Shown here: piece after piece, positions 10,344 to 30,356 of the stretch
How the letters are laid out: the number at the start of each line of letters is the position of its first letter
How positions within the stretch are numbered: the first letter of the stretch is position 1
Origin: Lentzea indica
GTDB taxonomy: Bacteria > Actinomycetota > Actinomycetes > Mycobacteriales > Pseudonocardiaceae
Length of the DNA: 62,187 bases
Direction of reading: 5' to 3'
NCBI RefSeq assembly: GCF_012184385.1
Contig: NZ_VSRL01000025.1
Coordinates: 1 to 62,187 of the forward strand
The notes under the pieces: model-generated
Databases searched by the model: none
What the model saw: the letters and a program-made list of their open reading frames with translations, nothing else
What the model was told of the DNA's origin: nothing
Translations under genes and position numbers: made by a program

Positions 10344-12058
10344 GTGGCGTTTCCGGACGCGCGCAGTGGATGCTGCGTGCCCGAACTCGTCCGTGGCTGG
10401 GTTGATCAACTTCCGTCCGCTCACGCGGTGGTCGATCCTGTGACCGACGAATCACTTACATACCAACAACTTTGGCACCTCTCCGGAGGGCTGGCCGCTG
10501 AGCTGACCGAACGGGGAGTCGCTCGGGGAGAGATCGTCGCCGTGAGCGGTGGACGGTCTGTCGGCATGGTCGTGGCGATGCTGGGCATCGCACGAGCGGG
10601 TGCCGCATACCTGCCGTTGGACGCGCATGCGCCCGCCGAACGGCTCACCGCGTTGCTCGAAGAGGCGGGCACGCGGTTCGTGGTCGGTGACAGCCCCGAG
10701 TTCCCGGGCGTGCGCAGGGTCTCCGCACAGGCGGAGAAGACCTTCAGCGCCAAGGAAATCGGACCGGACGACCCGTTCTACGTGAACTACACGTCCGGAT
10801 CGACCGGACGGCCCAAGGGCGTCGTGGTGCCGCATCGCGCGGTCGTGCGGCTCGTGTCGAATCCGGTGTTCTGCACGATCGAGCCGGGTGACCGCGTCGC
10901 GAACCAGTCCAACCCCGCGTTCGACGCCACGACGTTCGAGCTGTGGAACACGCTGACGTCCGGTGGCACCGTCGTGGTGCTGCCCGCCATCACCGACCTG
11001 CGCATCGACGACTGGATCGCGCTGGTCAGGGACTCGGGCATCTCGACGATGTTCTTGACGACGTCGCTGTTCCACATGGTCGCGCGGGAACGGCCCGCGG
11101 CGTTGCGCGGGCTGAAGACGCTGATCGCGGGCGGCGAGCAGATGGACATGGCCGCCACCCTGCGCGTGCTGGAGTCGGGACCGCCGGCCAGGCTCGTCAA
11201 CGGGTACGGCCGACCGAGACGACCACGTTCGCCACCTACTACGACTGCACGCTCGAAAGCCTGGCGGGCCTCGACCGGGTGCCGGTCGGATTCCCGTTGC
11301 AGGACACGACTTTGCACCTCATCGACGGCGAGCTGTGCGTCGGTGGTCCCGGTGTCGCGCTGGGGTACCTGCACCGCCCGGAGCTCACCGCCGAGCGGTT
11401 CGTGTCGGACCCGGTGTCGGGAAACCTCATGTACCGCACCGGTGACCTCGCCAGGGAGCTGCCGAACGGCGCGCTGGAGCTGCTCGGCCGGCGGGACCGG
11501 CAGGTGAAGCTGCGCGGGTTCCGCATCGAGCTGGAGGAGATCGAGCAGGCGGTCCTGGCGACCGGGCTCGCCGACAGCGCGTTCGTGGAGAAGGTGGGGG
11601 AGGGGCCGGCGGCGTCGCTCGTCGGGTTCGTCCTGCCCCGGTCCACGGTGGACGGTTCGGCTTTCAGCGAAGCGTTGCGCGCCAAGCTTCCCGCGTACAT
11701 GGTGCCCGCGCGCTGGCACGTGCTGACCGAGCTTCCGTACGGCCCCACCGGCAAGGTGGACAGGGCGAAACTGCTCGCCGAAATTTCTGGTGATTCAGTG
11801 GTATCAGAGGGCGATGAAGTCACTCCTACTGATGTGACAGACCATGTTGGACTCATCTGGCGGGAGGTGCTGGGAGTTCCCGGCGCCGATCCGGCGGACA
11901 ACTTCATCGACTCCGGCGGGAACTCGATCCTCGCGATCCAGCTGGCCTCGCGCCTGCGGGAACGACTCGCGATCGACCTCGGGCCCACCGACGTCCTGCT
12001 GGCCGATTCGCTGGCAGAACTGGCCACGCGCGTTCGGGATGAAGTAGCCGCCCGGTAA
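10344..12058 (+). CDS. NRPS loading module, A-PCP (one frame break)
   Basis: Starter module of the assembly line, about 571 residues: adenylation domain (about 15-495) and carrier protein (about 505-565). Core motifs: YTSGSTGRPKGVVVPHRA (A3), NGYG-PTETTTF (A5), YRTGDLARELPNGALELLGR (A7-A8), GPTGKVDR (A10) and DSGGNSILAIQLASRL with the phosphopantetheine serine. Reading the pocket residues against GrsA gives approximately D-A-F-F-I-G-G-T-F-K, one change from the known valine code D-A-F-W-I-G-G-T-F-K, so valine or another branched aliphatic amino acid is predicted. GTG 10344 has AGGGGAGA upstream. One C is missing near 11211 (within GGC-CCG), splitting the frame. No condensation domain, consistent with initiation. 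Confidence 0.88.
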
Positions 12059-12074
12059 CCGGGTTCTCCCCTCA

Positions 12075-12101
12075 GCACACGCCGATCTGGGCCGTGTGCG
12101 G
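12075..12101 (+). other. Inverted repeat between NRPS genes
   Basis: GCACACG and CGTGTGC form a 7-bp stem around an 11-base loop in the 83-bp gap between the two NRPS genes. It is not followed by a T-run, so it is more likely an mRNA processing or attenuation structure than a full terminator. This is the only sizeable gap inside the operon's biosynthetic core. Confidence 0.3.
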
Positions 12102-12141
12102 GTTCAACGCGCCCTTTTCCGACTATCACGGAGTTTCGCGA

Positions 12142-15100
12142 GTGACTCAGTTGCATCCGCTGTCGTTCGCACAGGAACGGCTCTGGTTCATCGACGCCGC
12201 CGCGCCTGCCGCGCCGACGTACAACGTGCCGCTGCTGATGAGGTGGCGGGAGAAGATCGACCTGCCGAGGCTCACCGCCGCGCTGCACGCGGTCGCCGCC
12301 AAGCACGAGGTGCTGCGGACCCGCTACGAGCTGCGCGACGGCCGCCCGGTTCAGGTCGTCGGCGACCCGCACGTGCCGGTCGAGGTGGTGTCCGATGTGG
12401 ACGACGTGCGCGCCGACGCGCTGCGCAGGGCGCGCGAGGGTTTCGACCTCGCCGCCGCGCCGCCGATCCGCTGCACGCTCTGGCCTGGCGAGCAGGACCT
12501 GCTGCTGGTCAACGTGCACCACATCGCCATCGACGGCTGGTCGCTCGCCGCGTTCTTCGACGACCTCGCCGCCGCGTACGCCGGTGCCGCTCTGCTGCCG
12601 CTTTCGCTGCAGTACAAGGACTTCGCCCGGCAGGACAGGTCGTCCTTCGACACCGCGGCGATGCGGGACCTCCTCGCACGCCGGGTCGAGGAGCTCAGCG
12701 AGCTCCCCGCCGGCCTCACCCTCGGCTCGCCGCGACGGCCACCGGGCCGGTCAGGCCGGGTGAGCAGCACGTCTTCACGATCCCGGACGAACTCTGGGAC
12801 CGCACGGCCGAACTGGCGAAGTCGTTGCGCGCCACCCCGTTCGTCGTGCTGTTCGCCGCTTACCAGGCCGTGTTGCAGCGCTGGTCGGGCCGCGACGAGT
12901 TCGTCGTCGGCACGGTCACCGCGAACCGCCCGCACGCCGAGGCAGAACACCTCGTCGGGTTCTTCGTCAACACCGTGCCGTTGCGCTGCCTGCCGCGGCC
13001 GGGCCAGACGTTCGCCGCGCTGTGCAAGGAAGTCCGCGTCGAGGCGTTCAAGTCGCTGACCTACCAGAGCATTCCGTTCGACCAGCTGACGGCGAGTGGC
13101 GCCCGCGGCGTGGTCGACGTCGGCTTCGCGTTGCAGAACATGCTCCCGCCCAAGGCCGGCACCCCGTGGAGCACGCCAGAGCTGCTGCCCACGGGCACTG
13201 CGAAGTTCGACCTGATCCTCATCGTCGAGGACGACGCCGAGGGGCGGCGCGGGCGGATCGAGTTCGCGACCGACCAGTACTCGGCCGACATGGCCCGGCG
13301 TCTGGGCGACAACTTCCTGACGTTGCTGCGTGCCGCCGTCGACGAACCCGCGACGCCGCTCGCCACACTGCCGTTGACAGCCAATGGATCTGTCGTTCTC
13401 GGTGCGGAACAGGACCTCGGCGGTGCCACCTCGGTGCTCGACGTCGTGGGCCACGCGTACGCACCGGACGCGCCGGCGGTGAGCGTCGCGGGCGACAGTG
13501 TTTCGTGGCGTGAGCTGGACGACTGGTCCTGGGCCGTCGCGAACCGCGTCACGGGCAGCGGTGAGTTCGTGCCGGTGCTGGCCGCCCGCAGCCCTGCCCT
13601 CGTCGCCGCCTGGCTCGGCGTTCTCCGCGCGGGAGCGGCCTACGCGCCGTTGAGCCTCGACACCCCGGCCGACCGCCTGGACCACGTTCTGGCGGAGCTG
13701 GACGCGAAGATCGTGCTGGCCGACCAAGCGGGCGCGGACCTGATCGCCCGGCACGGCACCGATGTCGAAGTCGTGCGGATCGAGGACTTCCGGCGAGCGA
13801 CCGGTACGCCGCGCACGCTCGACCTGATCGGCCAGGAACCCGCTGTCGTGATCTACACGTCCGGCACGACGGGCAGGCCGAAGGGCGTGCTCGTCCCGCA
13901 CAACGGCATGCTCAACACCTGCGTGTGGTGGGCGCGCGACATCGACCTCGGTCCCGGTGACCGGGTGTTGTGCACGTGGTCGACCTCGTTCGACGGCGCG
14001 ACGCACGAGGTGTTCCGCGCGTTGATCGCCGGGGCGGAGCTGGTGTTCGCCGACGACGTCGAGCGGCGCGACCCTCCTGCGCTGGCACGGTTGCTGCGCG
14101 AGGTCACCGTCACGTCGATGACGCCGAGCCTGCTGCGCGCCATCCTCGACGCCGACCAGGACGGTCCCACGACGCTGCGCACGGTGTACGTGGGCGGTGA
14201 GGGACTTCCCACGACGCTCGCAGAGGAATGCACCCGCCGCTGGGGTGTGCCGATGCGCAACATCTACGGCCCGACCGAGGCCAGCTGCATCAGCACGTTC
14301 GCGCCGGTGACGCTCGACGGCAGACCGCCCGCCATCGGCGTACCGGTGCCGAACACCCGCGCGTACGTTCTCGGTCCACAGCAGGAGGAGCTGCCCGACG
14401 GCGTTCCCGGTGAGCTGTGTGTCGCGGGCGCCGGAGTGGCGCTGGGCTACCTCGGTCAGCCCGACCGCACCGAGGCCGCGTTCCTGCTGGACCCGCTGGG
14501 CGGCCGGATGTACCGCACCGGCGACCGCGTCGTGCTGCGCGAGGACGGGCAGATCGAGTACCTCGGCCGGGTCGACGACCAGGTGAAGGTGCTCGGCAAC
14601 CGGATCGAGCTCGGCGAGGTCCGCAAGCTGCTGGAGGACCAGCCGTCGGTGAAGACCGCCGCGGTCAAGGCGGAGGGCACGCCGCTGCGCCTGGTCGCGT
14701 GGGTCGAGCTGACCGGTGCCGCGCCGGACCGCGACGAGCTGCTGAAGCCGTTGCTGCGCTGGGTTCCCGCGGCCGTGCTGCCGTCCGAGGTGTACGTCGT
14801 CGACACGATTCCGATGACGGGCAACGACAAGATGGACTTCACCGCGCTCGACGCGATGCGTGGCACCAGGCTGCCGGATGCCGTGCGCGGTGCCGTCGAG
14901 CTGACGCCGGAACAATGCCGCGCGGCCGAGCTGTTCGGCAGGGCGCTGGACCGGGACGCGGACGAGCTCCCGCTGGACGGCGACTTCTTCACCCTCGGCG
15001 GCCACTCGCTGCTCGCGGTGCGGATGCTCGCCGACACTCCGGTGGCGTTGCGGGACTTCCTCGCCGACCCGACCGTGGCGGGGCTCGGCGCTCTGCTCGG

Positions 15101-16360
15101 CACGACGGCCCAGGAGAACGTCGAGGTCGTCGTGACGAGCACCCGGCGACCTCGGTGCAGCAACGGTTCTGGTTCATCGACAAGGTGTCCGCGTTGCGCA
15201 CCGCCTACCTGGCACCGGTTCTCGCCGAGTTCGCCGGGCCCGTCGACGTCGAACGCCTCCGTGCCGCCACCGAACTGGTGCTCGGCAGGCACCCCGCGCT
15301 GCGCTCCCGCTTCATGTTGAACGCCAAGCAGCGCAAGGTGTTCTACCGCACCGACGGCAGCGCTCCCGAGGTGCACGTCACCGACGCGGCGCAGTGGACG
15401 GAGACGGAGCTCGCCGAGCACCTCGCGCAGGTGTGCTGGACGCCGTTCGACCTCGCCACCGAGGCACCGGCCTACGGCGAGATCGTCACGACCGCGGACC
15501 GCACGTTGCTCGTCCTGGTCACTCACCACATCGTCGCCGACGGGTGGTCGCACCAGGTGCTCGCCGAGCAGATCTCCCAGGCCTACCAAGGCAAGTCGCT
15601 AGCCGACCCGGTTCACCCGGCCGCGATCACCACGGGCGAGACCGGCGCGGAGGAGATCATCGCCAGCCTGGCGGGCGCACCGATCGACATAGAGCTTCCG
15701 CACGACAGTTCGCGCGGCCAAGTCCAGTCGACCGAAGGCACGACCTTGACAACGACTCTGCCCGCTCACGTCACCACGAAGTTGCAGGAGCTCGGCAGCA
15801 CGACGTTCATGACGGTGGCGGCGGTGCTCGCGGTCGCGCTGGCCCGGCGTGGCACGCAGCGGGACTTCCTGTTCGCGTTCCCGTGGGCCGGCCGGGACAA
15901 GGCGCAAGACGCCGTCGGCATGTTCGTGAACACCTTGGTGCTGCGCGTCGATCTGCGCGACGAACCAACGTGGCGGCAGCTGTTGGAGCGCGTGCGTGAG
16001 CACAGCACGACCTGCTACCGCAACGCCGACGTGCCGTTCGACGCGATCGCCACGGCGCTGCATCCCGGCCGCGACCTCAGCAGGCCCGCCGTCACCCCCG
16101 TGTACGTGACCGCGCTGCCCGGCCACGCCGCACCACCGGATCTCGGTGCGCCCGCGCGGTATCTGCAGCCGGAACCGTTGCACATCAAGTACGAGCTCGA
16201 GCTCACCGCCACGGACACGACCGAGGAACTGGAGCTGTCGCTCGCCTACGCGACGGCGCTGTTCGAGAAGTCCACTGTGGACGACCTGCTCGCTTCGGTG
16301 GTCACCGCCGCGACCGACCTGGCCATCGATCCCGATGCGCCCGCACTGAAGGAGATCTGA
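12142..16360 (+). CDS. NRPS elongation protein, C-A-PCP-C (two frame breaks)
   Basis: About 1406 residues. First condensation domain with active site VHHIAIDGWS near residue 127; adenylation domain about 440-915 (IYTSGTTGRPKGVLVPHN, IYGPTEASCIST, YRTGDRVVLREDGQIEYLGR, and an atypical A10 TGNDKMDF); carrier protein FFTLGGHSLLAVRML near 953; second condensation domain with THHIVADGWS near 1129. Pocket residues read about D-G-H-S-Y-G-I-C-I-K, which I cannot match to a known substrate. The terminal C domain has no A domain after it, so its acceptor is probably the free carrier protein encoded next. GTG 12142 is preferred over the upstream GTG 12094 because GGAG lies 8 bases before it. Single bases are missing near 12733 and 15150 (C runs). 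Confidence 0.88.
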
Positions 16361-16660
16361 GTGAACACTGCGACGCGCGACCAGGTGCGCCTGGCGTGGG
16401 CCGAGGTGCTGGACGTCGAGTCCGTACCGGACGACGTCAACTTCTTCGAGCTCGGCGGTGACTCGCTGCTGCTCATCGTTCTGCTGGAACGGCTCAACGC
16501 GATGACCGAACGCGATCTGGAGGCCGCCGACCTCTTCCAGCACAGCACCGTCACCGGGCAGGTCGAGCTGCTGACCTCGCCGGAGACGAAGCGCGAGCTC
16601 GTGGAACTGGGTGCGACGAACCGGCGTGGCCTGATCGGCCGCGCCCGACAGGGGAACTGA
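16361..16660 (+). CDS. Free-standing peptidyl carrier protein
   Basis: A 99-residue carrier protein beginning at GTG 16361, immediately after the NRPS stop, with AAGGAG as ribosome-binding site inside the previous gene's end. The phosphopantetheine attachment serine lies in FFELGGDSLLLIVLLERLN (about residues 27-45). A tail after residue 75 is rich in charged residues and may be a docking segment. Because the previous protein ends in an orphan C domain and a stand-alone adenylation domain lies at 24180, this carrier probably receives its amino acid in trans and presents it to that C domain, then hands the chain to the KS. Confidence 0.88.
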   Translation: MNTATRDQVRLAWAEVLDVESVPDDVNFFELGGDSLLLIVLLERLNAMTERDLEAADLFQHSTVTGQVELLTSPETKRELVELGATNRRGLIGRARQGN

Positions 16661-16662
16661 AC

Positions 16663-19997: not shown

Positions 19998-20000
19998 AAC

Positions 20001-20846
20001 ATGAACCACCGCATCGGTGTGCTCGGCGCGGGCGTCATGGGCGCCGCGATCGCCACGCTCGCGATCGGCCACGGCGTGCCCGTCGTGCTGGTCGACGTCG
20101 ACGAGGACACGCTCGCCAAGGCGCGCAAGGAGGTCCGCCAGCAGCTCAAGCTGGCCAGGTTGATGGGCAAGCTGCCCCGCACCGGCGAGGCGGAGCTCGT
20201 CACCACGACCGACTACGCGGATCTCGCGGACGTGACGTCGGTGATCGAGGCCGTCACGGAGAAGCCGGAGCTGAAGGCGAAGGTGCTCGCCGAGGTCTCC
20301 GGCGTCGTGCGGCCGGGCACGGTCATCGTGTCCAACACCTCGGCCATCCCCGTCGACGAGATGGCCGACTCGGTGGCGCGGCCGGAAGACCTGTGCGCCA
20401 TCCACTTCATGAACCCGCCGTACCTGATCCGCGCGGTCGAGGTGATCCGCGGGCCGCGCACCGGCGACGAGACCATGAGCCGGGTCACCGACCTGCTCGC
20501 GGCACTGGACCGCGACGGCGTGGTGGTCGGCGACGGGCCGGGGTTCGTGATCAACCGCATCCTGCAGCGCTCGATCAACGAGGCCGCGCGCATCGTCGAG
20601 GAGGGCAGGGCGACACCGGAGGCCGTCGACGCCGCCTTCGAGGGTTGCCTCGGACACCGCACGGGACCGCTCGCGACTGCCGATCTGATCGGTCTCGACA
20701 ACGTCGTGGACTCGTTGCGCGTACTGCACGACCGCACAGGGGACCGGGGCTACGAGCCCTGCGACCTGCTGGTGGCGAAGGTCGCCGCCGGGGACTTCGG
20801 CCGCAAGACCGGCCGCGGATTCTACGAGCACGGAGGAGCACTGTGA
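20001..20846 (+). CDS. FkbK-like 3-hydroxyacyl-ACP dehydrogenase (hydroxymalonyl pathway)
   Basis: A 281-residue relative of 3-hydroxyacyl-CoA dehydrogenase. In the glycerate-derived extender pathway it oxidises the C3 hydroxyl of glyceryl-ACP. Visible: dinucleotide-binding motif IGVLGAGVMGAAIA at the N-terminus, NTSAIPVDEMA near 115, catalytic-histidine segment CAIHFMNPPYLIRAVEVIRG (about 133-152), and the C-terminal FGRKTGRGFYEH. ATG 20001 lies 3 bp after the PKS stop. The adjacent ACP, acyl dehydrogenase and FkbH homologues make the pathway assignment strong; alone, the sequence could not be distinguished from a fatty-acid enzyme. Confidence 0.87.
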   Translation: MNHRIGVLGAGVMGAAIATLAIGHGVPVVLVDVDEDTLAKARKEVRQQLKLARLMGKLPRTGEAELVTTTDYADLADVTSVIEAVTEKPELKAKVLAEVSGVVRPGTVIVSNTSAIPVDEMADSVARPEDLCAIHFMNPPYLIRAVEVIRGPRTGDETMSRVTDLLAALDRDGVVVGDGPGFVINRILQRSINEAARIVEEGRATPEAVDAAFEGCLGHRTGPLATADLIGLDNVVDSLRVLHDRTGDRGYEPCDLLVAKVAAGDFGRKTGRGFYEHGGAL

Positions 20847-21100
20847 CCACGTCCGTCAACCACGCAGCCGAGATCGAGCGGCAGCTTCTGGCATTCGTCG
20901 AGAAGCACACGAAGAAGACGTGGACGCCGGACGACGACTTCTTCGCGGCCGGTGCCGTGTCGTCCATGTTCGCGATGCAGCTCGTCGTGTTCATCGAGAG
21001 CACGTTCGACGTCGAGGTGTCCGGCGACGACCTGGTGATCGACAACTTCCGGACCGTCGGCTCGATGACCTCGCTGGTGTCGAGGTTGCGCGGTGAGTGA
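20843..21100 (+). CDS. FkbJ-like acyl carrier protein
   Basis: An 85-residue discrete carrier protein on which the three-carbon glycerate unit is oxidised to hydroxymalonyl. The modified serine is in FFAAGAVSSMFAMQLVVFIE (about 34-53); the usual Asp before Ser is replaced by Ser, as occurs in some FkbJ homologues. GTG 20843 overlaps the preceding stop (GTGA) and follows GGAGGA. It overlaps the acyl dehydrogenase gene by 8 bp, so expression of FkbK/J/I homologues is tightly coupled. Confidence 0.85.
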   Translation: MTTSVNHAAEIERQLLAFVEKHTKKTWTPDDDFFAAGAVSSMFAMQLVVFIESTFDVEVSGDDLVIDNFRTVGSMTSLVSRLRGE

Positions 21101-22193
21101 GGAGCTGTATGCGCTGGTCACCGATCTCGTCGGTGATCGCGCGGACGAGTGGGACCGCGTCGGCGTGATCCCCGCCGACGTCGTCCGGAAGCTCGGGCGC
21201 GCGGGAGCGCTCTGCCCCGAGGTACCGGTGAAGTTCGGCGGGCTCGGCCTGTCGAGCCTTGAGAACGGCGAGTTCACCGCACACGTCGGTGCGTTGTGCA
21301 GCTCGTTGCGCAGCCTGATGACCTCGCAGGGCATGGCGGCGTGGGCGATCCAGCGGTTCGGCTCGGCCGAGCAGCGCGCCCACTACCTCGCCAGGCTCAC
21401 GTCGGGAGAGCTGGTCGGCATCGCGTTCAGCGAACGCGGTGCAGGCAGTGACCTCGCCGCGATGGCCACCACGATCAAGGTCGAGGGCGACGAAGTCGTC
21501 GTCGACGGAGCCAAGGTCTGGGTCACCGGCGCGGGCTACGCCGACCTGATCGTGGTGATCGGCCGGTTCGGTGACGGCGCCGCCGCGGTCGTCGTGCCGG
21601 TCGACGCGCCGGGCGTGAAGGTCAGCAGGGTCGCGAACCCGATGGGCTGCCGTGCCGCCGGACATTCCAATGTGGACCTTCACGACGTACGTCTGCCGGC
21701 GGACGCGTTGCTGCGCGGTGCGGGCCAGCCGTTGTCGATGCTGGTCACCTCGGCGCTCACGTACGGCCGGGTGTCGGTGGCGTGGGGCTGCGTCGGCATC
21801 CTGCGGGCATGCCTCGGTGCCGCCGCACGGCACGCCAAGGCGCGCCAGCAGTTCGGCAAGCCGTTGGCAGAACACCAGCTCGTGAGCCGTCACCTGGCGG
21901 AGCTGCTGGTCGCCGAGCAGGTCGCGACCCGTGCCTGCGAGCACGCCTCACGGTGCTGGGACGACAACTCACCCGAGATGATCACCGCCGCCGTCGTGGC
22001 CAAGCACGTCAGCGCGGGCAACGCGGCGCGTGGTGCGTCCAGCGCGGTGCAGGTGCTCGGGTCGTCCGGTGCGAACGACGGCCACGTGGTCGCCCGCGCC
22101 TACCGGGACGCGAAGCTCATGGAGATCATCGAGGGCAGCAACGAGATCTGTCAGCTCGTGCTGGCCGAGCACGCTCTGGCGGTGGCGTCATGA
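21093..22193 (+). CDS. FkbI-like acyl-ACP dehydrogenase
   Basis: A 366-residue FAD-dependent acyl-CoA dehydrogenase family enzyme. In this pathway it performs the second oxidation on the carrier-bound three-carbon unit. Motifs: GIAFSERGAGSDLAAMATTI (flavin/substrate region, about 108-127), YGRVSVAWGCVGILRAC, RQQFGKPLAEHQLV, and the catalytic-base region AKLMEIIEGSNEICQLV near the C-terminus. GTG 21093 (VSEELYALV) sits inside the end of the carrier gene; the stop TGA overlaps the next ATG (ATGA). Length is typical of FkbI homologues. Confidence 0.87.
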   Translation: MSEELYALVTDLVGDRADEWDRVGVIPADVVRKLGRAGALCPEVPVKFGGLGLSSLENGEFTAHVGALCSSLRSLMTSQGMAAWAIQRFGSAEQRAHYLARLTSGELVGIAFSERGAGSDLAAMATTIKVEGDEVVVDGAKVWVTGAGYADLIVVIGRFGDGAAAVVVPVDAPGVKVSRVANPMGCRAAGHSNVDLHDVRLPADALLRGAGQPLSMLVTSALTYGRVSVAWGCVGILRACLGAAARHAKARQQFGKPLAEHQLVSRHLAELLVAEQVATRACEHASRCWDDNSPEMITAAVVAKHVSAGNAARGASSAVQVLGSSGANDGHVVARAYRDAKLMEIIEGSNEICQLVLAEHALAVAS

Positions 22194-23149
22194 CCTCTGC
22201 GATCGGCATTGGTGCGATTCACTGCCTGCTGCCGGACGAGCGGACCAAGGTCGTCGACCTGCCCGAGTTCGGATTGCTGGGCCACGACGAGCAGGAGTTC
22301 GCGCGAGCGTCCGGAGTGGACACCGTCTCGGTGTTCGAGGACGCGGCGACGACCGACCTCGCCGCCCGTGCGATCGCCGGGCTCGGGCCGGTCGATCCGG
22401 ACGTGCTCATGCTCGTCGGCCCGCGGTCGCCGGAGGTGCTGCTGGGATCGGACTCGGGTTCGGTCGAACACCAGGCGGGACTGAAGAAGGCGTTCTCGTT
22501 CACCGTGGACGGCCTGGGCTGCGCGGGTTCCAGCGCGGCATGGGCGCTTGCGGCGGACCTGTTGAAGGCAGACGCCGGTCGCGAGTCCGTGGTGATCGCG
22601 CACGCCAGCCGGCCCACCGGCGCGGACCGGATCCGGTTCCCCGTCACGGTGATCGGCGACGGCGCGTACGCGATGACGATGGTGCGCGGCGGACGTCCGG
22701 TCCTGCGTGCCCACCGGCAGGAGACCGACGGGTCGTTCCACGACCTGTTCCGCGTCGACTACAAGCAGGCGCCCTGGTACGAGTGGCGCGAGGAGTGCGA
22801 GTCGGCGGACAGGTACCGCTTCGAACTGGCCATGCACAGCCAGAAGCGGCTCGGCCGGCTCGTGCGGGAGGTGCTCGCCGACGCGGGCGTGGAGATCCCC
22901 CAGGTCTCCGCGACGCTCATGCAGAACGTCACGGCCAGCGCCTACGGGTTCTACGAGACGTTGCTCGGCGTGCCGATCCACCCCGTCTGCGGGCGGCACC
23001 TGAGCGAGCTGGGCCACCTCGGCGCCATGGACGTCGTGCTGAACCTGGACCGCCTGCTGCGGTCCGGCGAGCTGCGGGAGGGGGATCTGGTGCTGGTGCT
23101 GAACAACAGCCCGGTCGCCGCGTGGGCGGTGACCCTGTGGGAAGTGTAG
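22190..23149 (+). CDS. KAS III-like protein with altered catalytic triad
   Basis: A 319-residue thiolase-fold protein related to 3-oxoacyl-ACP synthase III. The nucleophile is retained in DGLGCAGSSAAWALAADLL (Cys about 110). The usual His (PHQAN-type motif) aligns with TLMQNVTASAYGF and the usual Asn (GNTS-type) with ELGHLGAMDVVLNL, so the Cys-His-Asn triad is not conserved. Such variants in glycerate-using pathways (for example tetronate clusters) or acyltransferase-type KAS III proteins move acyl groups rather than perform decarboxylative condensation. Here it may transfer the hydroxymalonyl unit from the free ACP to the AT-less PKS module; that is an inference. Translationally coupled to its neighbour at 22190. 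Confidence 0.78.
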   Translation: MTSAIGIGAIHCLLPDERTKVVDLPEFGLLGHDEQEFARASGVDTVSVFEDAATTDLAARAIAGLGPVDPDVLMLVGPRSPEVLLGSDSGSVEHQAGLKKAFSFTVDGLGCAGSSAAWALAADLLKADAGRESVVIAHASRPTGADRIRFPVTVIGDGAYAMTMVRGGRPVLRAHRQETDGSFHDLFRVDYKQAPWYEWREECESADRYRFELAMHSQKRLGRLVREVLADAGVEIPQVSATLMQNVTASAYGFYETLLGVPIHPVCGRHLSELGHLGAMDVVLNLDRLLRSGELREGDLVLVLNNSPVAAWAVTLWEV

Positions 23150-23157
23150 GTGCAGCG

Positions 23158-24179
23158 GTGAGCGACACCGTCAAATGCCTCGTGTGGGACCTCGACCACA
23201 CGCTGTGGCAAGGAATCCTGCTCGAGGACGGCGACGTCACGCTGACCGGCGAGATGCGCTCGGTGGTCGCCGAGCTCGACTCGCGCGGCATCCTGCAGTC
23301 GGTCGCCAGCCGCAACGACCACGACAACGCGTGGGCCAAGCTCGAAGCGCTCGGCATGGCGGAGTACTTCGTGCACCCGCAGATCGGCTGGGGGCGCAAG
23401 TCCGACTCCGTCAAGGCGATCGCGGACTCGTTGAACTTCGCCCTCCACACCATCGCGTTCATCGACGACACGCCGACCGAACGCGCCGAGGTGGCGTTCC
23501 ACCACCCCGAAGTGCGGTGCTACGAGGCCGAACGTGCCCTCACGCTGCCGAGCCTGCCGGAGTTCAGCCCCGCCGTCGTCACGGTCGACGCACGTCGCCG
23601 CCGTGAGATGTACCAGGCCGGCTTCCAACGCGAGGCCGCGCGGACCGACCACGACGGCCCCGACGAGGAGTTCCTCAAGTCGCTCGGCCTGGAGCTGCGC
23701 ATCCACCGCGCCGGCGACGAGGAGATCTCGCGCGTCGAGGAACTCACGCTGCGCACCAGCCAGATGAACGCGACCGGCGTGCACTACTCGGACGCGGACC
23801 TGCGCGCGCTGCTGGCCGACCCACGCCACGAGGTGCTGGTCACCACGCTGACGGACCGCTTCGGCCCGCACGGTGCGGTGGGCGTCATGCTCATCGAGAA
23901 GCATCGCGACGTGTGGAACCTCAAGCTGCTCGCGACGTCGTGCCGCGTGGTGTCGTTCGGCACCGGCGCGGTGATCCTGCGGTGGCTCACCGACCAGGCC
24001 GCCGCGCGGGCGTGCACCTGGTGGCCGACTTCCGCAAGACCGACCGCAACCGCATGATGGAGGTCGCGTACCGGTTTGCGGGCTTCAACACAGCGGAATG
24101 CTCTTGCCGTGCAACGCTTTCTGAGACCGACGTCCAGCGCCTGCACCTCGTGCCGACGCGGCAGTGCGAGCCGACGACG

Positions 24180-24183
<4 letters not shown>
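23158..24183 (+). CDS. FkbH-like glyceryl-ACP synthase (one frame break)
   Basis: HAD-superfamily enzyme that takes 1,3-bisphosphoglycerate, dephosphorylates it and loads a glyceryl unit onto the carrier protein. The HAD motif LVWDLDHTLWQGILLEDGDV is at residues about 8-27 (catalytic Asp of DLDxT), AFIDDTPTERAEV near 100, and a transfer-domain cysteine in ATSCRVVSFGTGAV near 262. GTG 23158. A base is missing near 24005; the C-terminus (GVHLVADFRKTDRNRMMEVA to QRLHLVPTR) continues in the next frame. In that frame no stop occurs before the following adenylation domain, so either a second indel hides the stop (a TGA lies at 24181-24183 in the original frame) or the two are truly fused. Confidence 0.85.
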
Positions 24184-25724
<1,541 letters not shown>

Positions 25725-25728
25725 GAAG

Positions 25729-26969
25729 ATGTCGTTCCTCCGTCATCTGGTCCCGCCACCGGGACCGATCCGGATCCTCGCCGCCAGCAGCCTGGGCCGC
25801 AGTGTCGGCCACGGAATGCTGCTGTCGGTCAGCGTGCTGTTCTTCACCAGATCGGTGGGGCTGCCCGCGACCCAGGTCGGCCTGGGGCTCACCATCGCCG
25901 CGGTCGTGGGAATGCTCACCAGCGTTCCGGCAGGCCACGCGGCGGACGTGCTGGGCGCCCGCACCACGGCGACGTTCTTCGTCGTGCTGCAAGGCGTACT
26001 CATCTGCGGGTACGCGTTGGTGGGCGGGTTCGTGGGATTCCTGATCGCGGCGAGCCTCGTCGTGATGGCGGAGGCCGGCTCCGACGCCTCCCGCGGCGCG
26101 CTCGTGGCCGGTGTCGTGCCGCAGGGTGAACGCGTGAAGGCGCGTGCGTTCATCCGCTCGGTCAACAACATCGGCATCTCGCTCGGCGCCGTGAGCGGTG
26201 GTGTCGCGCTGCACTTCGACACCAGGTCCGTGTACGTCGGTCTCCTGATCGCGTGCGGTGTGGTGTACGCCGCGGCCGGTCTGGTCTACCTGGTGCTGCC
26301 TAAGGTCGAGCCCGCTGCGAAGAAGAGGGACGAGGACGGCGGCCCGCGCTGGGTCGTGCTGCGCGACCGCCCGTTCGTCGTGGTGGCGCTGATCAACGCG
26401 GTGCTGGTGATGAACGGCGGCATCCTCACCGTGGCGTTGCCGATCTGGATCGCGCAGCGCACCACGGCACCGACCTGGGTCTACGCGGCGATCCTCGTGC
26501 TGAACACGGTGATGGTCGTGCTGTTCCAGGTGAGGGTGAGCCAGGGCACCGACGACGCGGCGGGTGGCGCGAAGGCCTTGCGCCGCGCCGGTCTCGCTCT
26601 GGCGGCCTGCTGCGGGTTGTTCGCACTGGCCGCCGGTCAGCCGGCGTGGGTCGCGGTGGCGCGCTGGCGGCGGGTGCGCTGGTGCACGTGTTCGGTGAGC
26701 TGCTGGCCGCCGCCGGTGGCTGGGCGCTGGCCTACGAGCTGGCACCGGAACACGCGATCGGGCAGTACCAGGGCCTGTTCGGCATGACCGACCAGCTCGC
26801 GGCGGCGGTCACCCCGGTGGCCGCGACGGTGCTGATCATCGGTGTCGGCTGGCCGGGCTGGCTCGTGTTCGGCGTCCTGATGCTCGCGGCCGGTGCCGTC
26901 GCGCCGATCGCCCAGGGCTGGGCGTCGCGCACCAGGGAGCGGTACGGGGTGATGGTCCACAGTGGATGA
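25729..26969 (+). CDS. MFS transporter, probable product exporter (one frame break)
   Basis: Major facilitator superfamily protein, about 413 residues with around 12 hydrophobic helices. The loop between helices 2 and 3 carries SVPAGHAADVLGARTTA, an MFS motif-A relative, and LIAASLVVMAEAGSDASRGA follows. ATG 25729 comes 4 bp after the adenylation gene with AGAGGTAAG upstream. One G is missing near 26660 in a GTGGG run; the last helices (GALAAGALVHVFGELLAAAG onward) are in the next frame. Position inside the operon suggests export of, and self-resistance to, the cluster product. Confidence 0.83.
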
Positions 26970-26982
26970 AAAGGGGAGAGAC

Positions 26983-27906
26983 TTGAACCGGAGCTGCTAC
27001 GGCTTCCCGGTGGAGTGTTCGGCACACCCGGACGCGACGCACGTGATCGACGGCTTCTTCGGCCCCGCGGCTGGGCCTGTCGTGCCCGGTGCGCCGGTCG
27101 TGCGCGTGCTCGTCGACGTCGTCGAGCAGGGCGGGGACCAGACCGAACCACCGTACTTCCCGGAGAACTGGGAAACCGCCGAGAAGATCACCATCGACGT
27201 CGGCCGCACCACGGCGGTCGTCGACCCTGAGGCCTGGACCGTGCGCATCTCGTTGTCGCGTCAGGACCTGCACGACCAGATCGTCTGGGGACGCTGGATC
27301 CTTGAGCGCGCCTTCATCTACCTGGTGTGCCGGTCTCAGCGGCACTACCCGTTGCACGCGGGCGCGGTGTCGGTCGGCGGCCGGACCGCGGTCGTCACGG
27401 CGGACAGCGGCGTCGGCAAGTCGACGTTCTCCGCGTGGGCGCTTCGCCGCGGGGCTGACTTCGCGGGCGAGGACATCGTGGTGCGGCACATGGACGACGA
27501 GTCGGGCTCGCTGTGGGGTTATCCCCGCGTCACCTACCTGTCGCCACAACTGCTGGAGCTCTGGCCCCAGCTCGAAGGCGCGCAGAGCGCCGAGGTGCCG
27601 AAGCGCGACAAGTTCCGCGTGATCCTGCCGTCGTCGTTCGACTCACGGATGCTGGCCGGCTCGGTGCCCCACTGCCTGCTGTTCCTCGCGCGCGGCAACG
27701 GGGAGCTGCGGGACGTGGAAATCGACCACGCCATCGAGCGCACCCGGTCCGACTGGAACACCGGCAAGATCGGCACCTCGTTCGAGGCGGACGTGGAGAA
27801 GGACCTGCGCGGCCTGCTGGAGGGCATGCCGGTCTGGGAGCTCGCGCTGACGCCGGACTTCGACACCAACCACGACACCCTGGTCGCCGCGATGGAGAGG
27901 AGCTGA
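26983..27906 (+). CDS. HPr-kinase-like P-loop protein 1
   Basis: A 307-residue protein with an N-terminal domain of about 115 residues (SCYGFPVECSAHPDATHVID) and an HPr kinase/phosphorylase C-terminal-like ATPase domain. The latter shows HYPLHAGAVSVGGRTAVV, Walker A TADSGVGKSTFSAW (about 148-161, nearly the HprK sequence GDSGVGKS) and FAGEDIVVRH at the HprK acidic motif. TTG 26983 is chosen because AGGGGAG lies 5 bases upstream and the length then matches its paralogue at 29442; an in-frame GTG at 26962 is the alternative. HprK-like enzymes phosphorylate serine hydroxyls on HPr or, in some lasso-peptide clusters, on a peptide. In this operon a small-molecule or carrier-bound substrate is plausible but unproven. 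Confidence 0.8.
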   Translation: MNRSCYGFPVECSAHPDATHVIDGFFGPAAGPVVPGAPVVRVLVDVVEQGGDQTEPPYFPENWETAEKITIDVGRTTAVVDPEAWTVRISLSRQDLHDQIVWGRWILERAFIYLVCRSQRHYPLHAGAVSVGGRTAVVTADSGVGKSTFSAWALRRGADFAGEDIVVRHMDDESGSLWGYPRVTYLSPQLLELWPQLEGAQSAEVPKRDKFRVILPSSFDSRMLAGSVPHCLLFLARGNGELRDVEIDHAIERTRSDWNTGKIGTSFEADVEKDLRGLLEGMPVWELALTPDFDTNHDTLVAAMERS

Positions 27907-27907
27907 C

Positions 27908-28960
27908 GTGGACTTCAGCCTGTTCTACTTCGCCAACAACAGCCGCGAGCTCGAGAGCGACCGTTACCGGCTGCTGCTCGACGGCGCGAAGTTCGCCGAC
28001 CGCAACGGTTTCTCCGCGGTGTGGACGCCGGAACGGCACTTCCACGAGTTCGGCGGTCTCTACCCGAACCCGTCGGTGACCGGTGCCGCGGTCGCCGCCG
28101 TCACCGAACGGATCCAGATCCGCGCGGGCAGCGTGGTCGCACCGTTGCACAACCCGTTGCGCATCGCCGAAGAATGGTCCGTGGTGGACAACATCTCCGG
28201 CGGCCGCGTGGGACTCTCGTTCGCGTCCGGCTGGCACGCGGTGGACTTCGCGCTGAAGCCGGAGAACTACGAGAACCGCCGCGAGATCCTGATCTCCTAC
28301 ACGGACCAGGTCCGCAGGCTCTGGCGCGGTGAGAAGATCGACGTCGTCGACGGCACGGGGAAACCGCAGCAGGTCGGCATCTTCCCGCCGCCCGTGCAGG
28401 CGGAGCTGCCGGTGTGGATCACCAGCGCGGGCGGTGTCGAGACGTTCCGCAACGCGGGCCGCGCCGGCGCCGGGCTGCTGACCCACCTGCTCGGCCAGGA
28501 CCTCGGCGAGCTGGAGGCGAAGATCGCCGAGTACCGCGCCGCGTCCGTCGAGCACCACGGCAAGGACGGCCACGTCGTGCTGATGGTGCACACGTTCCTC
28601 GGCGAGGACGAGGACGAGGTGCGCGAGCTGGTGCGCGGCCCGATGTCGGACTACCTGCGCAGCTCGCTCGGGCTGCTGCTGGGCTCCCAGCAGGGCAGCG
28701 CGCGCAAGATCGACCCGTCCACGTTGCGGGAGAAGGACGTCGACTTCCTCGTGGAGCGGGCGTTCGAGCGCTACTACGAGGACGGCGCGTTGCTCGGCAC
28801 GGTCGACAAGACCCGCAAGATCGTCGACAGGGCGGCGGGCATCGGCGTGGACGAGATCGCCTGCCTGATCGACTTCGGCCTGCCGCAGGACACCGTCCTT
28901 TCCGGACTGAACCACCTGAACGCGTTACGTCAGAGCGTGTCAGTTTCGGGCAAGTCATGA
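27908..28960 (+). CDS. Luciferase-like FMN-dependent monooxygenase (MupA/Atu6239 type), with TTA codon
   Basis: A 350-residue LLM-class flavin monooxygenase of the subgroup commonly found with NRPS/PKS genes (MupA/Atu6239 family, TIGR04020). Typical text: MDFSLFYFANNSRELESDRY, FSAVWTPERHFHEFGGLYPN, GSVVAPLHNPLRIAEEWSVV, VGLSFASGWHAVDFALKPEN. It uses FMNH2, presumably from the reductase encoded next, to hydroxylate or oxidise the chain; the exact step is unknown. GTG 27908 is 1 bp after the kinase-like gene. A TTA leucine codon at 28925-28927, near the 3' end, may make translation depend on the bldA tRNA. Confidence 0.88.
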   Translation: MDFSLFYFANNSRELESDRYRLLLDGAKFADRNGFSAVWTPERHFHEFGGLYPNPSVTGAAVAAVTERIQIRAGSVVAPLHNPLRIAEEWSVVDNISGGRVGLSFASGWHAVDFALKPENYENRREILISYTDQVRRLWRGEKIDVVDGTGKPQQVGIFPPPVQAELPVWITSAGGVETFRNAGRAGAGLLTHLLGQDLGELEAKIAEYRAASVEHHGKDGHVVLMVHTFLGEDEDEVRELVRGPMSDYLRSSLGLLLGSQQGSARKIDPSTLREKDVDFLVERAFERYYEDGALLGTVDKTRKIVDRAAGIGVDEIACLIDFGLPQDTVLSGLNHLNALRQSVSVSGKS

Positions 28961-29439
28961 ACACCCGCTTCCGCAGCACCGCGGCGACGTTCCCAACCGG
29001 CGTGACCGTGCTGAGCACGGTGTCGGACGGCGAGCCGCACGGCATGACCGTGAACTCGTTCGCGTCGATCTCCATCGACCCGCTGCTGGTGCTGGTGTCG
29101 GTGAACAGCTCGTCGCGCACCTACGAGCGGATCGTCCGCTCCGGCACGTTCGCGGTGACCGTGCTGAGCGACTGTCAGCAGGAGGTCGCCAGGTGGTTCG
29201 CGAACTCAGGGAGGCCGTCCGGCGCCGAGGGGTTCGCCGGTGTCTCGTGGAAACCAGCGCCGCACTCGCGGTCGCCGGTCCTGCTGGACGGGATCAGCTA
29301 CTTCGACTGCGAGCTCGACCAGGCACACACGGCCGGTGACCACACGATGCTCATCGGTGCTGTGCGCGCGTACGACGTCTTGTCCGACCGGCCGCCCCTG
29401 CTCTTCGTGCGCAGCCGGTTCACCGAACTGAGGAAGTGA
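28957..29439 (+). CDS. Flavin reductase family protein
   Basis: A 160-residue flavin reductase domain protein: RSTAATFPTGVTVLSTVSDG at the N-terminus, GMTVNSFASISIDPLLVLVS (flavin-binding region), SSRTYERIVRSGTFAVTVLS, and GDHTMLIGAVRAYD near the end. It should reduce FMN with NAD(P)H and supply it to the adjacent monooxygenase. ATG 28957 overlaps the monooxygenase stop (ATGA), so the two-component system is translationally coupled. Length and motifs are normal for the family. Confidence 0.88.
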   Translation: MNTRFRSTAATFPTGVTVLSTVSDGEPHGMTVNSFASISIDPLLVLVSVNSSSRTYERIVRSGTFAVTVLSDCQQEVARWFANSGRPSGAEGFAGVSWKPAPHSRSPVLLDGISYFDCELDQAHTAGDHTMLIGAVRAYDVLSDRPPLLFVRSRFTELRK

Positions 29440-29441
29440 GC

Positions 29442-30356
29442 ATGGAACTGGTCAAGGAGTGCTACGGGTTCCGGGTGGTCTGCTCGGTGCACCCCGAGGC
29501 ACGCGACGTGGTCGAGGCGTTCTTTGGCGACGGCGAACCCGCGCCGGGCGCGCAGGAGGTGCACCTGACCTTCGACGTGGTGGACGGAGCCGGTGTGCCG
29601 TCGGAGAACCCGCCGCACACGTTGGAGGTCATCGCCGCGAACCCGATCACCATCGACACCGGCAACTCCCGCGCGGTGATCACTCCCGACGACTGGACGG
29701 CCACGGTCGTCCTGGCGCGCGGCGACCTCTCCGACCAGATCGTGTGGGGCCGCTGGATCCTGGAGCGCCTGTTCCTGTACCTGGTGTGCCGTTCGCCCCG
29801 GCACTACCCGCTGCACGCGGGCGCGGTCGGCGTCGACGGCCGCACGATCATGCTGTCCGCGCCCACCGGCACCGGCAAGTCCACGTTCACGTTCTGGTGC
29901 CTGCACCGCGGTGCCGAGCTCTTCGGCGAGGACATCATGGTGCGCCACATGGACGACCCGTCCCGGACCGCGTGGGGCTACTCGCAGGTCGTGTACCTGG
30001 ACGAGGAAACGATCACGCGCGCCGCGCTCACCGACGCCGACGTCAGTGCCGTGGCACCGGGGGAGAAAGCCCGCGTGCGGCTTCCCGCGTCGTTCAGCGA
30101 CAGGCTGCGCACCAGAGCCGACCTCGACGCGGCGGTGTTCCTGGTCCGCGACGGCTCGACCGGCACCCGCCCGTTGTCCCTCGACGATGCCGTGAAGCGT
30201 TGCTGGGACGACATCACCACCGGCAAGACCGACCAGGCCGTGCTGGACGCGGTCGACGCGGATCTGCGGACGCTGCTCGCCGATCTCCCGCTGCGCGAGT
30301 TCGCGCTCGACGGCGATCTGGACGAGTGCTACGACGGGCTGCGCCGCCTGCACTGA
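29442..30356 (+). CDS. HPr-kinase-like P-loop protein 2
   Basis: A 304-residue paralogue of the protein at 26983, alignable along the whole length: ECYGFRVVCSVHPEARDVVE, DQIVWGRWILERLFLYLVCR, HYPLHAGAVGVDG, Walker A SAPTGTGKSTFTFW, FGEDIMVRHMDD. The Walker A differs from HprK more than in copy 1 (APTGTGKS against ADSGVGKS), and C-terminal halves diverge, suggesting different substrates or a kinase plus a phosphatase/regulatory partner. ATG 29442 has AGGAAG upstream; an in-frame GTG at 29436 overlaps the reductase stop. It is the last gene of the operon, 18 bp before a strong terminator. Confidence 0.8.
   Translation: MELVKECYGFRVVCSVHPEARDVVEAFFGDGEPAPGAQEVHLTFDVVDGAGVPSENPPHTLEVIAANPITIDTGNSRAVITPDDWTATVVLARGDLSDQIVWGRWILERLFLYLVCRSPRHYPLHAGAVGVDGRTIMLSAPTGTGKSTFTFWCLHRGAELFGEDIMVRHMDDPSRTAWGYSQVVYLDEETITRAALTDADVSAVAPGEKARVRLPASFSDRLRTRADLDAAVFLVRDGSTGTRPLSLDDAVKRCWDDITTGKTDQAVLDAVDADLRTLLADLPLREFALDGDLDECYDGLRRLH

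What the first reader, a model, noticed from the sequence alone, without database searches (positions are those of the whole stretch)
10344..30356. NRPS-PKS operon combining hydroxymalonyl-ACP supply, reductive release and paired HprK-like proteins
Seen: A-PCP, C-A-PCP-C, free PCP, AT-less KS-ACP-R, FkbK/J/I/H-like set, KAS III-like protein, stand-alone A domain, exporter, flavin monooxygenase plus reductase, and two HPr-kinase-like proteins, all contiguous and mostly overlapping. Known: the Fkb set makes hydroxymalonyl-ACP; R domains release aldehydes or alcohols. Inferred: a short peptide (Val-like starter, one unassigned residue, one trans-loaded residue) extended by a hydroxymalonyl-type unit and released reductively, giving an alpha-hydroxy-beta-keto terminus, then oxidised and perhaps phosphorylated. 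I do not recognise this combination from a characterised cluster.
Basis: partly seen in the sequence, partly recalled or inferred. Interest (0 to 1): 0.88.

Follow-up and report, generated by a model that had tools for sequence, protein, structure and literature searches.

The report
Peptide-polyketide gene cluster with kinase pair
A soil bacterium carries an uncharacterised set of genes that probably builds a short peptide, adds a hydroxylated carbon unit without the usual loading domain, releases it as an aldehyde or alcohol and may then attach phosphate with two unusual kinases.

Summary
Seven frame breaks in the window are probably assembly indels: Lentzea aerocolonigenes NBRC 13195 has the same cluster unbroken. 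Gene order recurs in two Micromonospora genomes. The KAS III-like gene leads to 34 actinobacterial loci.

Missed points:

(1) The KAS III-like protein has C-Q-H in place of the C-H-N triad, in 34 of 34 complete sequences. Its model resembles FabH and the acyltransferases ChlB3 and CerJ. ATs were found in 2 of 34 loci, never on the core KS. I infer that it replaces the AT by shuttling the ACP-bound unit.

(2) The two HprK-like proteins form two old clades with a PEPCK/HprK-type fold, below every curated HprK cut-off. One clade is fused to FkbH in four Streptomycetaceae loci; S. capoamus adds CYTH, phosphatase and NDK-like genes. This favours a phosphorylated product, not shown.

(3) FkbH is fused to the separate A domain in Lentzea.

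(4) A divergent hydroxyaldehyde-reductase-like gene probably belongs to the set.

Product and kinase substrate remain unknown. New variant of a known kind.

The parts
9188..10024 (-). beta-hydroxyacid dehydrogenase (sulfolactaldehyde/tartronate-semialdehyde reductase/HIBDH superfamily); proposed aldehyde reductase of the pathway
   Evidence: PF03446+PF14833; best NCBIfam sulfolactaldehyde reductase 151.2 bits, cut-off 348 not reached; same divergent place in G215 93%, G264 58%, G295 50%; close orthologue in 2 of 24 Lentzea genomes, the same 2 that have the full-length KAS III-like gene
10344..12058 (+). NRPS A-PCP (Val/Ile-like code DAFFIGGTF, reading recalled); frame break about 11211
   Evidence: PF00501, PF00550; unbroken orthologue G215; code
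12094..16360 (+). NRPS C-A-PCP-C (code DGHSYGICI read in G215, residue unassigned); frame breaks about 12724-12744 and 15132-15146
   Evidence: PF00668, PF00501, PF00550; G215 single ORF
16361..16660 (+). free PCP
   Evidence: PF00550 52.2 bits
16654..19997 (+). PKS module KS-linker-ACP-R without AT; frame breaks about 17172 and 17930-17994
   Evidence: PF00109/PF02801, RhiE/CurL linker, PF00550, PF07993; TIGR01746 241 bits over cut-off; unbroken orthologue has no AT
20001..20846 (+). 3-hydroxyacyl-CoA-dehydrogenase-like (FkbK/ZmaG role)
   Evidence: PF02737, PF00725
20843..21100 (+). discrete ACP (FkbJ role)
   Evidence: PF00550 28.5 bits
21093..22193 (+). acyl-CoA-dehydrogenase-like (FkbI role)
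   Evidence: PF00441/PF02771/PF02770
22190..23149 (+). KAS III-like protein, C111/Q245/H276; proposed transacylase for the ACP-bound extender
23146..24004 (+). FkbH-type glyceryl transferase, continuous with the next A domain in G215
   Evidence: TIGR01686 331.8 bits; fusion
24003..25724 (+). A domain acting in trans (code DPFFIIVVA read in G215), fused to FkbH in Lentzea
   Evidence: PF00501/PF13193; TIGR01733 320.6 bits, cut-off 317.4; code
25729..26969 (+). MFS exporter; frame break between 26554 and 26745
   Evidence: PF07690; G215 unbroken
26962..27906 (+). HprK-like kinase, beta clade
27908..28960 (+). MupA/Atu3671-type FMN luciferase-like monooxygenase
   Evidence: TIGR04020 489.3 bits
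28957..29439 (+). flavin reductase partner
   Evidence: PF01613 148.8 bits
29436..30356 (+). HprK-like kinase, alpha clade
30374..30396 (+). GC-rich hairpin after the last gene, terminator-like
   Evidence: read in the sequence printed; not tested statistically

Best explanation
A biosynthetic operon for a short NRPS-PKS product. A-PCP loads a Val/Ile-like starter; C-A-PCP-C adds a second residue; the trans A domain (continuous with FkbH in Lentzea) probably charges the free PCP with a third, joined by the last C domain. FkbH puts a glyceryl unit from 1,3-bisphosphoglycerate on the discrete ACP; the two dehydrogenases oxidise it to hydroxymalonyl-ACP. Because no AT was found in the cluster, the KAS III-like protein, which has lost the decarboxylation triad, carries the unit from the discrete ACP to the module's ACP. 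The KS condenses it with the peptide, giving a beta-keto-alpha-hydroxy thioester, and R releases an alpha-hydroxy-beta-keto aldehyde. The divergent reductase may reduce it to the primary alcohol, the luciferase-like monooxygenase oxidises the product at an unknown site, the MFS protein exports it, and the two HprK-like kinases phosphorylate a hydroxyl. Shown: gene content, conservation, predicted folds, lost triad, no AT found. Inferred: each catalytic step, order of loading, the phosphate.
For: Domain calls. Synteny with three other genomes. The four-gene hydroxymalonyl set plus KAS3 recurs: ACP in 34, HBDH in 31, ACDH in 29, FkbH in 27 and KS-ACP-R in 25 of 34 loci, some of them cut by contig ends. 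AT in 2 of 34 loci and not on the core KS (85). C-Q-H in 34 of 34 complete KAS3 sequences. Structure neighbours: FabH first, then the acyltransferase ChlB3, with CerJ twelfth; ChlB3 and CerJ have 22-24% identity against 14-21% for the FabH entries in the listed top 50; one CerJ entry there is titled as holding malonic acid on its catalytic Cys. HprK model pLDDT 92.6; nearest folds are PEPCK (E 1.8e-9) and, lower, HprK/P (E 2.6e-7); H132, G150/G152/K153/S154/T155, E170-D171 and R175 invariant in 13 sequences. Phosphate-linked neighbours in S. capoamus. In zwittermicin the hydroxymalonyl unit passes from one ACP to a second by an AT (PMC4207774, abstract and outline). HprK homologues phosphorylate a C-terminal Ser hydroxyl of lasso peptides, some repeatedly (PMC8498205, passages).
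Against: Nothing biochemical supports it. KAS3 also occurs in loci where no KS was found in the stretch held: 8 of 34, of which L045, L060, L062 and L064 lie near contig ends but L042, L047, L049 and L050 have 10 kb held on both sides; and in three loci without FkbH but with NRPS domains (L049, L050, L064), so its role may be broader than loading a KS module. L058 has a normal AT module, L056 a second KS with AT. KAS3 scores best against ketosynthase models (PRK06840 50.6 bits, cut-off 315) and its first structural match is a FabH. HprK is found in only 6 of 34 loci, so phosphate is not needed for the core chemistry. Foldseek TM-scores to the query are moderate (PEPCK about 0.5-0.6, HprK about 0.3, rmsd 6 A or more), and the kinase could act on a protein or a regulator. 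The R domain could give aldehyde or alcohol.
Confidence: 0.5

Rival explanations
1. The KAS III-like protein is itself a condensing or coupling enzyme (C-C, ester or amide forming, as recalled for the tetronate FabH-like enzymes), and the AT-less KS is loaded by an AT from elsewhere in the genome.
For: KAS3 persists in loci without a KS in the held stretch: L042 and L047 hold A-PCP, HBDH, ACP, ACDH, KAS3 and FkbH. Active Cys is kept in 35 of 35. The genome has many other PKS genes.
Against: The His and Asn needed by FabH for decarboxylation are Gln and His in 34 of 34; a KS with its Cys-His-His motifs is already there in the window (motifs recalled); FabH cut-off missed by far (27.8 of 292.1 bits).
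Confidence: 0.25
2. The HprK-like proteins are not tailoring kinases: they regulate the assembly line by phosphorylating a carrier protein or enzyme, or serve self-protection by keeping the product inactive inside the cell.
For: Canonical HprK phosphorylates a protein (established knowledge). An FkbH-HprK fusion in 4 loci could mean control of the glyceryl step. 28 of 34 loci lack them. S. capoamus has a phosphatase and an aminopeptidase N beside them.
Against: Two kinases of separate clades kept together in Lentzea and Streptomycetaceae, plus CYTH and NDK-like neighbours, fit small-molecule phosphates better. Lasso-peptide HprK homologues modify the peptide itself.
Confidence: 0.3
3. The trans A domain loads the discrete ACP with serine or another amino acid to make an aminomalonyl-type unit (as ZmaJ in zwittermicin), so that the extender is not hydroxymalonyl.
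For: In zwittermicin a dedicated seryl-AMP synthetase sits beside an ACP/dehydrogenase set (PMC6395733, passages). The A domain is fused to FkbH in G215.
Against: FkbH, specific to the glyceryl route, is in 27 of 34 loci. The A code DPFFIIVVA is not the serine code (recalled). Zwittermicin uses two ACPs and two ACDHs for the two routes, here there is one of each, while a PCP without A needs loading.
Confidence: 0.15
4. The cluster is a decaying pseudogene cluster in the window strain.
For: Seven frame breaks in 20 kb; a 3.8-kb stretch present in G215 is missing just downstream.
Against: Each gene lies in one open frame in G215 at 88-98% identity. Broken frames also occur elsewhere in this 634-contig draft.
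Confidence: 0.1

Closest known systems
Hydroxymalonyl-/methoxymalonyl-ACP supply of zwittermicin, FK520, ansamitocin, galbonolide
   Same: FkbH, discrete ACP, acyl-CoA-dehydrogenase-like and 3-hydroxyacyl-CoA-dehydrogenase-like genes side by side
   Different: No O-methyltransferase seen and no AT that could accept the ACP-bound unit; a C-Q-H KAS III-like gene sits inside the set; FkbH is fused to an A domain (Lentzea) or to an HprK-like kinase (four Streptomycetaceae loci)
KAS III-like acyltransferases CerJ and ChlB3
   Same: FabH fold; conserved Cys; ChlB3 and CerJ are among the twelve closest solved structures
   Different: C-Q-H instead of a triad with His at the FabH His position (CerJ's triad recalled); proposed acceptor is a module ACP, not a sugar or other hydroxyl; only 22-24% identity
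HPr kinase/phosphorylase and the lasso-peptide kinases (PadeK, ThcoK, SyanK)
   Same: PEPCK/HprK-type P-loop fold, P-loop, upstream His and acidic pair; sits in a biosynthetic operon
   Different: Below every curated HprK cut-off tested; two old clades; NRPS-PKS product instead of a ribosomal precursor; lasso-kinase sequences were not compared here
Foxicin cluster (PMC5318452)
   Same: NRPS-PKS with FkbH domain and separate A domain, widespread in Streptomyces
   Different: KS-AT modules, TE release, FkbH inside the PKS; no KAS III-like, HBDH, R or HprK-like gene named in the part of its gene table that I saw (passages; the table is cut before its last rows, and foxC is an unspecified ATP/GTP-binding protein)
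Peptide aldehyde/alcohol NRPSs ending in R (myxochelin type)
   Same: Terminal thioester reductase (TIGR01746 over cut-off)
   Different: R follows a PKS extension with a hydroxymalonyl-type unit instead of an amino acid

Membership tests
FkbH-type hydroxymalonyl-ACP cassette | FkbH glyceryl transferase | tested here: met
   TIGR01686 331.8 bits, cut-off 146.65
FkbH-type hydroxymalonyl-ACP cassette | Discrete ACP, acyl-CoA-dehydrogenase-like and 3-hydroxyacyl-CoA-dehydrogenase-like partners adjacent | tested here: met
   kept together in G215, G264, G295
FkbH-type hydroxymalonyl-ACP cassette | Hydroxymalonyl actually formed and incorporated | not testable with these tools
   needs enzymes or labelling
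AT-dependent use of ACP-linked extenders (zwittermicin, FK520) | AT domain on the module or beside it | tested here: not met
   no AT in window pieces or unbroken orthologue
FabH / KAS III ketosynthase | Cys-His-Asn triad and TIGR00747 cut-off | tested here: not met
   C111 kept, His and Asn are Q245 and H276 in 34 of 34; 27.8 of 292.1 bits
KAS III-like acyltransferase (CerJ/ChlB3 type) | FabH fold with Cys and without the decarboxylating triad; acyl transfer | tested here: inconclusive
   fold and near structures fit, but FabH ranks first; activity not testable
HPr kinase/phosphorylase | TIGR00679/PF07475 over cut-off | tested here: not met
   11.9 of 240 bits for the first protein, no hit listed for the second; PF07475 14.6 of 33.3 bits for the first, none for the second
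HprK-related kinase A or B (TIGR04352/TIGR04355) | model cut-off 200 bits | tested here: not met
   18.3-24.8 bits
PEPCK/HprK-type P-loop kinase fold | fold shared by PEPCK and HprK, with P-loop | tested here: met
   AF2 model 92.6 pLDDT; PEPCK E 1.8e-9, HprK/P E 2.6e-7, TM to query 0.3-0.6; only the first protein was modelled
Lasso peptide kinase system | ribosomal precursor with B/C lasso enzymes | not tested
   not searched for
MupA/Atu3671 luciferase-like monooxygenase | TIGR04020 cut-off | tested here: met
   489.3 of 244.45 bits
Terminal thioester reductase (R) release | TIGR01746 cut-off | tested here: met
   241 of 213.35 bits
Aminomalonyl-ACP route (ZmaJ type) | serine-activating A domain loading a discrete ACP | tested here: inconclusive
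   code DPFFIIVVA is not the recalled serine code; activity not testable

The most novel reading that the evidence does not exclude
A family of actinobacterial assembly lines in which a triad-swapped KAS III-like protein has taken over the job of the acyltransferase for ACP-bound extender units, and in one branch two dedicated PEPCK/HprK-fold kinases (one sometimes fused to the glyceryl-loading FkbH) phosphorylate, perhaps more than once, the hydroxyl that the glyceryl-derived unit brings in. That would be a new loading logic for AT-less modules and, as far as my searches show, the first HprK-type kinases tailoring a non-ribosomal product.
Probability: 0.3. Interest if true: 0.82.

Novelty: new variant of a known kind. 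Interest (0 to 1): 0.63.

Why it matters
If right, it gives a testable answer to how an AT-less module receives an extender that exists only on a carrier protein, and points to phosphorylated peptide-polyketides in a branch of a cluster family with 34 sequenced loci. The natural set of clusters with 0, 1 or 2 HprK-like genes is a ready comparison for what the kinases do.

Tried and rejected
Rejected: decay of the cluster (open frames in G215). Foxicin as the known product (domain content differs). Serine-fed aminomalonyl as the only extender (FkbH present; A code not that of serine, recalled). HprK pair as a recent tandem copy: the tree separates the two by a 100/98 split shared by Lentzea and Streptomycetaceae (L041, G295 and one L035 row are long branches). 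Rfam hit for the conserved stretch after 30414: none; the DNA search shows that G215 carries an extra 3.8 kb there, with a gene of no Pfam match and two GT87 genes, so the conserved stretch is probably the tail of a GT87-type gene left by a deletion; that reading of the frame was made by eye.

Led nowhere: literature searches for HPr kinase with NRPS clusters listed lasso-peptide papers only; for hydroxymalonyl with thioester reductase and luciferase-like monooxygenase nothing fitting; for KASIII-like trans loading nothing fitting among the 15 of 53 papers listed. The VIA-align library was not available. The G318 stretch fetched as upstream of L054 was an unrelated contig (L084; no cluster gene matched). 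A-domain codes of the second and third A domains match no residue I can name. I recall galbonolide work naming a KAS near the methoxymalonyl genes but could not read it; only its reference line was seen.

Limits: loci carry at most 10 kb each side and several end with their contig, so absences are of the stretch held, except HprK, searched in the whole 34 genomes (matches in 7 of 34; 6 full length, G325 only 25 bits over 44 positions). In the genome samples only part of the first-look candidates was scored (up to 7 a genome, 5). Presence means a best-assigned tblastn match of at least 40% identity, FkbH at E 1e-20; so weaker HBDH or ACDH relatives in L049, L050, L064 count partly as absent, and L062 shows only the 3' half of KS-ACP-R. 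'Aalone' hits include the FkbH tail that the query carries, so its 30 of 34 is not a count of A domains. The FkbH query was out of frame; one search uses the window's FkbH instead. ATs were sought with two AT queries by tblastn and by Pfam on selected proteins. Catalytic positions by alignment to 2ebd.
Full report
What is there. The window is contig C177 of a 9.97-Mb, 634-contig draft genome. G215, in the window's genus, carries the cluster on a contig of 371567 bases, the length of the Lentzea aerocolonigenes NBRC 13195 record that holds L032, so the window strain is a Lentzea. In the same way G264 is the Micromonospora arborensis genome of L041 (239942 bases), and G295 shares its genus code. 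The luciferase-like monooxygenase, FkbH, R and trans-acting A models pass their curated cut-offs. After HprK2 a GC-rich hairpin follows (read), and upstream the first gene is divergent from a beta-hydroxyacid dehydrogenase.

Frames. Codon-position GC and piecewise translation show seven frame changes between 10344 and 26745. In G215 each gene lies in one open frame, and another KS in the same draft is split over three frames. There FkbH and the 'stand-alone' A domain form one 882-codon frame, while in G264 and G295 they are separate frames. G295 itself has a frame change between the first C and the A domain of its C-A-PCP-C.

The cluster family. HprK1 as query found full-length relatives in 4 of 298 genomes of the order, own genome included; the other 9 of the 13 matching genomes have matches of 18-22 bits. 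Fetching around them showed the full gene order in G215, G264 and G295. A profile of the KAS III-like protein gave 34 loci in named genomes. Counts over these 34: ACP 34, HBDH 31, ACDH 29, FkbH 27, KS-ACP-R 25 (L062 its 3' half only), LLM 12, MFS 11, HprK 6. Within Lentzea the full-length KAS3 is in 2 of 24 genomes; 16 more show matches of at most 38.9 bits. In a class-wide sample of 394 genomes only the window's own has full-length HprK-like matches; the other 22 matching genomes have at most 47 bits over at most 133 positions.

The KAS III-like protein. The profile aligns to FabH 2ebd with Cys kept and the His and Asn of the triad replaced by Gln and His. Over 35 sequences C111 is invariant; Q245 and H276 are invariant in the 34 that reach that far. 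The AF2 model (pLDDT 88.9) has FabH first and ChlB3 and CerJ among the twelve nearest solved structures; ChlB3 and CerJ have the higher identities (22-24%), and a CerJ entry is titled as carrying malonic acid on the catalytic cysteine. A tblastn search with two AT domains found ATs in 2 of 34 loci: on a second, distant KS in L056 and on a PKS module in L058; none on the core KS. In zwittermicin an AT moves hydroxymalonyl from the discrete ACP to a second ACP (PMC4207774, abstract and outline). Here the KAS III-like protein is the best candidate in the cluster for that step. Against this: eight loci show no KS in the held stretch; L045, L060, L062 and L064 lie near contig ends (L060 carries KR, DH and ACP of a PKS), but L042, L047, L049 and L050 have 10 kb on both sides. 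L042 and L047 hold A-PCP, HBDH, ACP, ACDH, KAS3 and FkbH, in L042 between housekeeping genes. In L049, L050 and L064 NRPS domains stand beside KAS3 without FkbH; L049 also has a P450 and a TE. The L061 locus has two KS without AT, in a KS-DH-KR-ACP arrangement; in L060 an O-methyltransferase sits in the cassette. So moving a carrier-bound acyl unit fits these contexts, but the acceptor may differ and condensation is not excluded.

The kinases. Sequence models place them only loosely near HprK (in one search a different P-loop protein ranks first). The predicted fold of the first is firm (pLDDT 92.6) and its nearest solved folds are PEPCK (TM to query about 0.5-0.6) and then HprK/P (about 0.3). 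H132, the P-loop, E170-D171 and R175 are invariant in 13 sequences. A tree of 14 sequences separates an alpha clade (Lentzea HprK2, the FkbH-linked Streptomycetaceae copy, the single copies of L041 and G295) from the Lentzea HprK1 and second Streptomycetaceae copy by a 100/98 split (the root is arbitrary). In L033, L034, L035 and L063 the alpha copy is in one open frame with FkbH. In L033 the next genes are an A domain, a CYTH-domain protein (26.3 bits, cut-off 23.2), a tyrosine-phosphatase-family protein, aminopeptidase N (TIGR02412, 1077.7 bits), the second HprK and an NDK-like protein (PF00334 40.5 bits over cut-off, but 24.1 of 155 bits for the NCBIfam NDK model); a 730-aa FAD/NAD(P)-binding protein lies upstream. 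This phosphate-handling company is the best argument for a phosphorylated, perhaps polyphosphorylated, product; lasso-peptide kinases described as HPr kinase homologues do this to a terminal Ser (PMC8498205, passages). The six HprK-bearing stretches whose second A domain I could read have codes of one type (G215, G295, CAPO, L034, L063, PARM; that of G264 was not read; CAPO and PARM are my names for the S. capoamus and Streptantibioticus stretches), but L054 has a similar A domain and no HprK in its genome, so the residue does not explain it alone. L036 and L039, without HprK, lack the second A domain altogether (C-PCP-C); the same break in the match is seen in L040, L043, L044, L046 and L048.

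The upstream reductase. 9188-10024 (-) belongs to the sulfolactaldehyde/tartronate-semialdehyde reductase superfamily without passing a cut-off. It is kept in the same divergent place in G215, G264 and G295 (93, 58, 50%). In 24 Lentzea genomes the close copy is in the two with the cluster, next best 52%. The neighbouring PEP-hydrolase and IucA/IucC genes are not found in the Micromonospora stretches held. The stretches upstream of the S. capoamus and Streptantibioticus clusters gave no match to it. A reductase of 2-hydroxy-3-oxo acids is what an alpha-hydroxy aldehyde would call for; inference only.

Product guess. Val/Ile-like residue, an unassigned residue, a third residue loaded in trans, then CO-CH(OH)-CHO or CO-CH(OH)-CH2OH, oxidised by the MupA-type monooxygenase and phosphorylated. 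A-domain codes were read by alignment with recalled GrsA positions; the final Lys of each code was assumed. No product of this family was met in ten literature searches of open-access PMC (listings, and passages or abstracts of four papers); subscription papers and MIBiG were out of reach, so a described product cannot be excluded.

Verdict. Observation confirmed, interpretation partly supported. A new variant of a known kind, with two features of real interest: a triad-swapped KAS III-like protein in place of the AT, and a pair of undescribed PEPCK/HprK-fold kinases.

Noticed in passing
L042 and L047: Two loci of nearly the same layout (A-PCP, HBDH, ACP, ACDH, KAS3, FkbH) come from records named Kibdelosporangium aridum and Rhodococcus rhodnii NRRL B-16535; the latter genome is 12.4 Mb, so its name looks wrong. 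FkbH of L047 is split over two frames.
   Followed up: partly
L033:14600-20415: CYTH protein, tyrosine-phosphatase-family protein, aminopeptidase N and NDK-like protein inside the S. capoamus cluster; the aminopeptidase may be a resistance copy of the target.
   Followed up: partly
window 30357-30760: About 3.8 kb present in G215 (two GT87-like genes and one gene without Pfam match) is missing here; a 113-bp stretch (30414-30526) matched at 80-88% in a number of Lentzea genomes remains.
   Followed up: partly
window 30707-32074: TIR-domain protein directly after the cluster, kept in G215 (75%).
   Followed up: no
window 5908-8368: Two divergent IucA/IucC-type siderophore synthetase genes.
   Followed up: no
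window 8355-9191: PEP-hydrolase-like gene (PF09370, 402.6 bits) adjoining the upstream reductase.
   Followed up: no
L049, L050, L064: A different use of the KAS III-like protein: NRPS domains with ACP and distant HBDH/ACDH (and in L049 a P450 and a TE), without FkbH or KS in the stretch held.
   Followed up: partly
L058, L060, L061: Type I PKS loci where the KAS III-like gene sits with HBDH, ACP, ACDH and FkbH (O-methyltransferase seen in L060); the two KS of L061 lack AT, L058 has one.
   Followed up: partly
L030 (G295), C-A-PCP-C gene: G295 has a frame change inside C-A-PCP-C between C and A; assembly error or split gene not told apart.
   Followed up: no
window 56955-58355: GH62 arabinofuranosidase with ricin-type lectin domain.
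   Followed up: no
window 3062-5407: BTAD/NB-ARC (SARP-like) regulator near the cluster; a BTAD protein also lies after the flavin reductase in G264.
   Followed up: no
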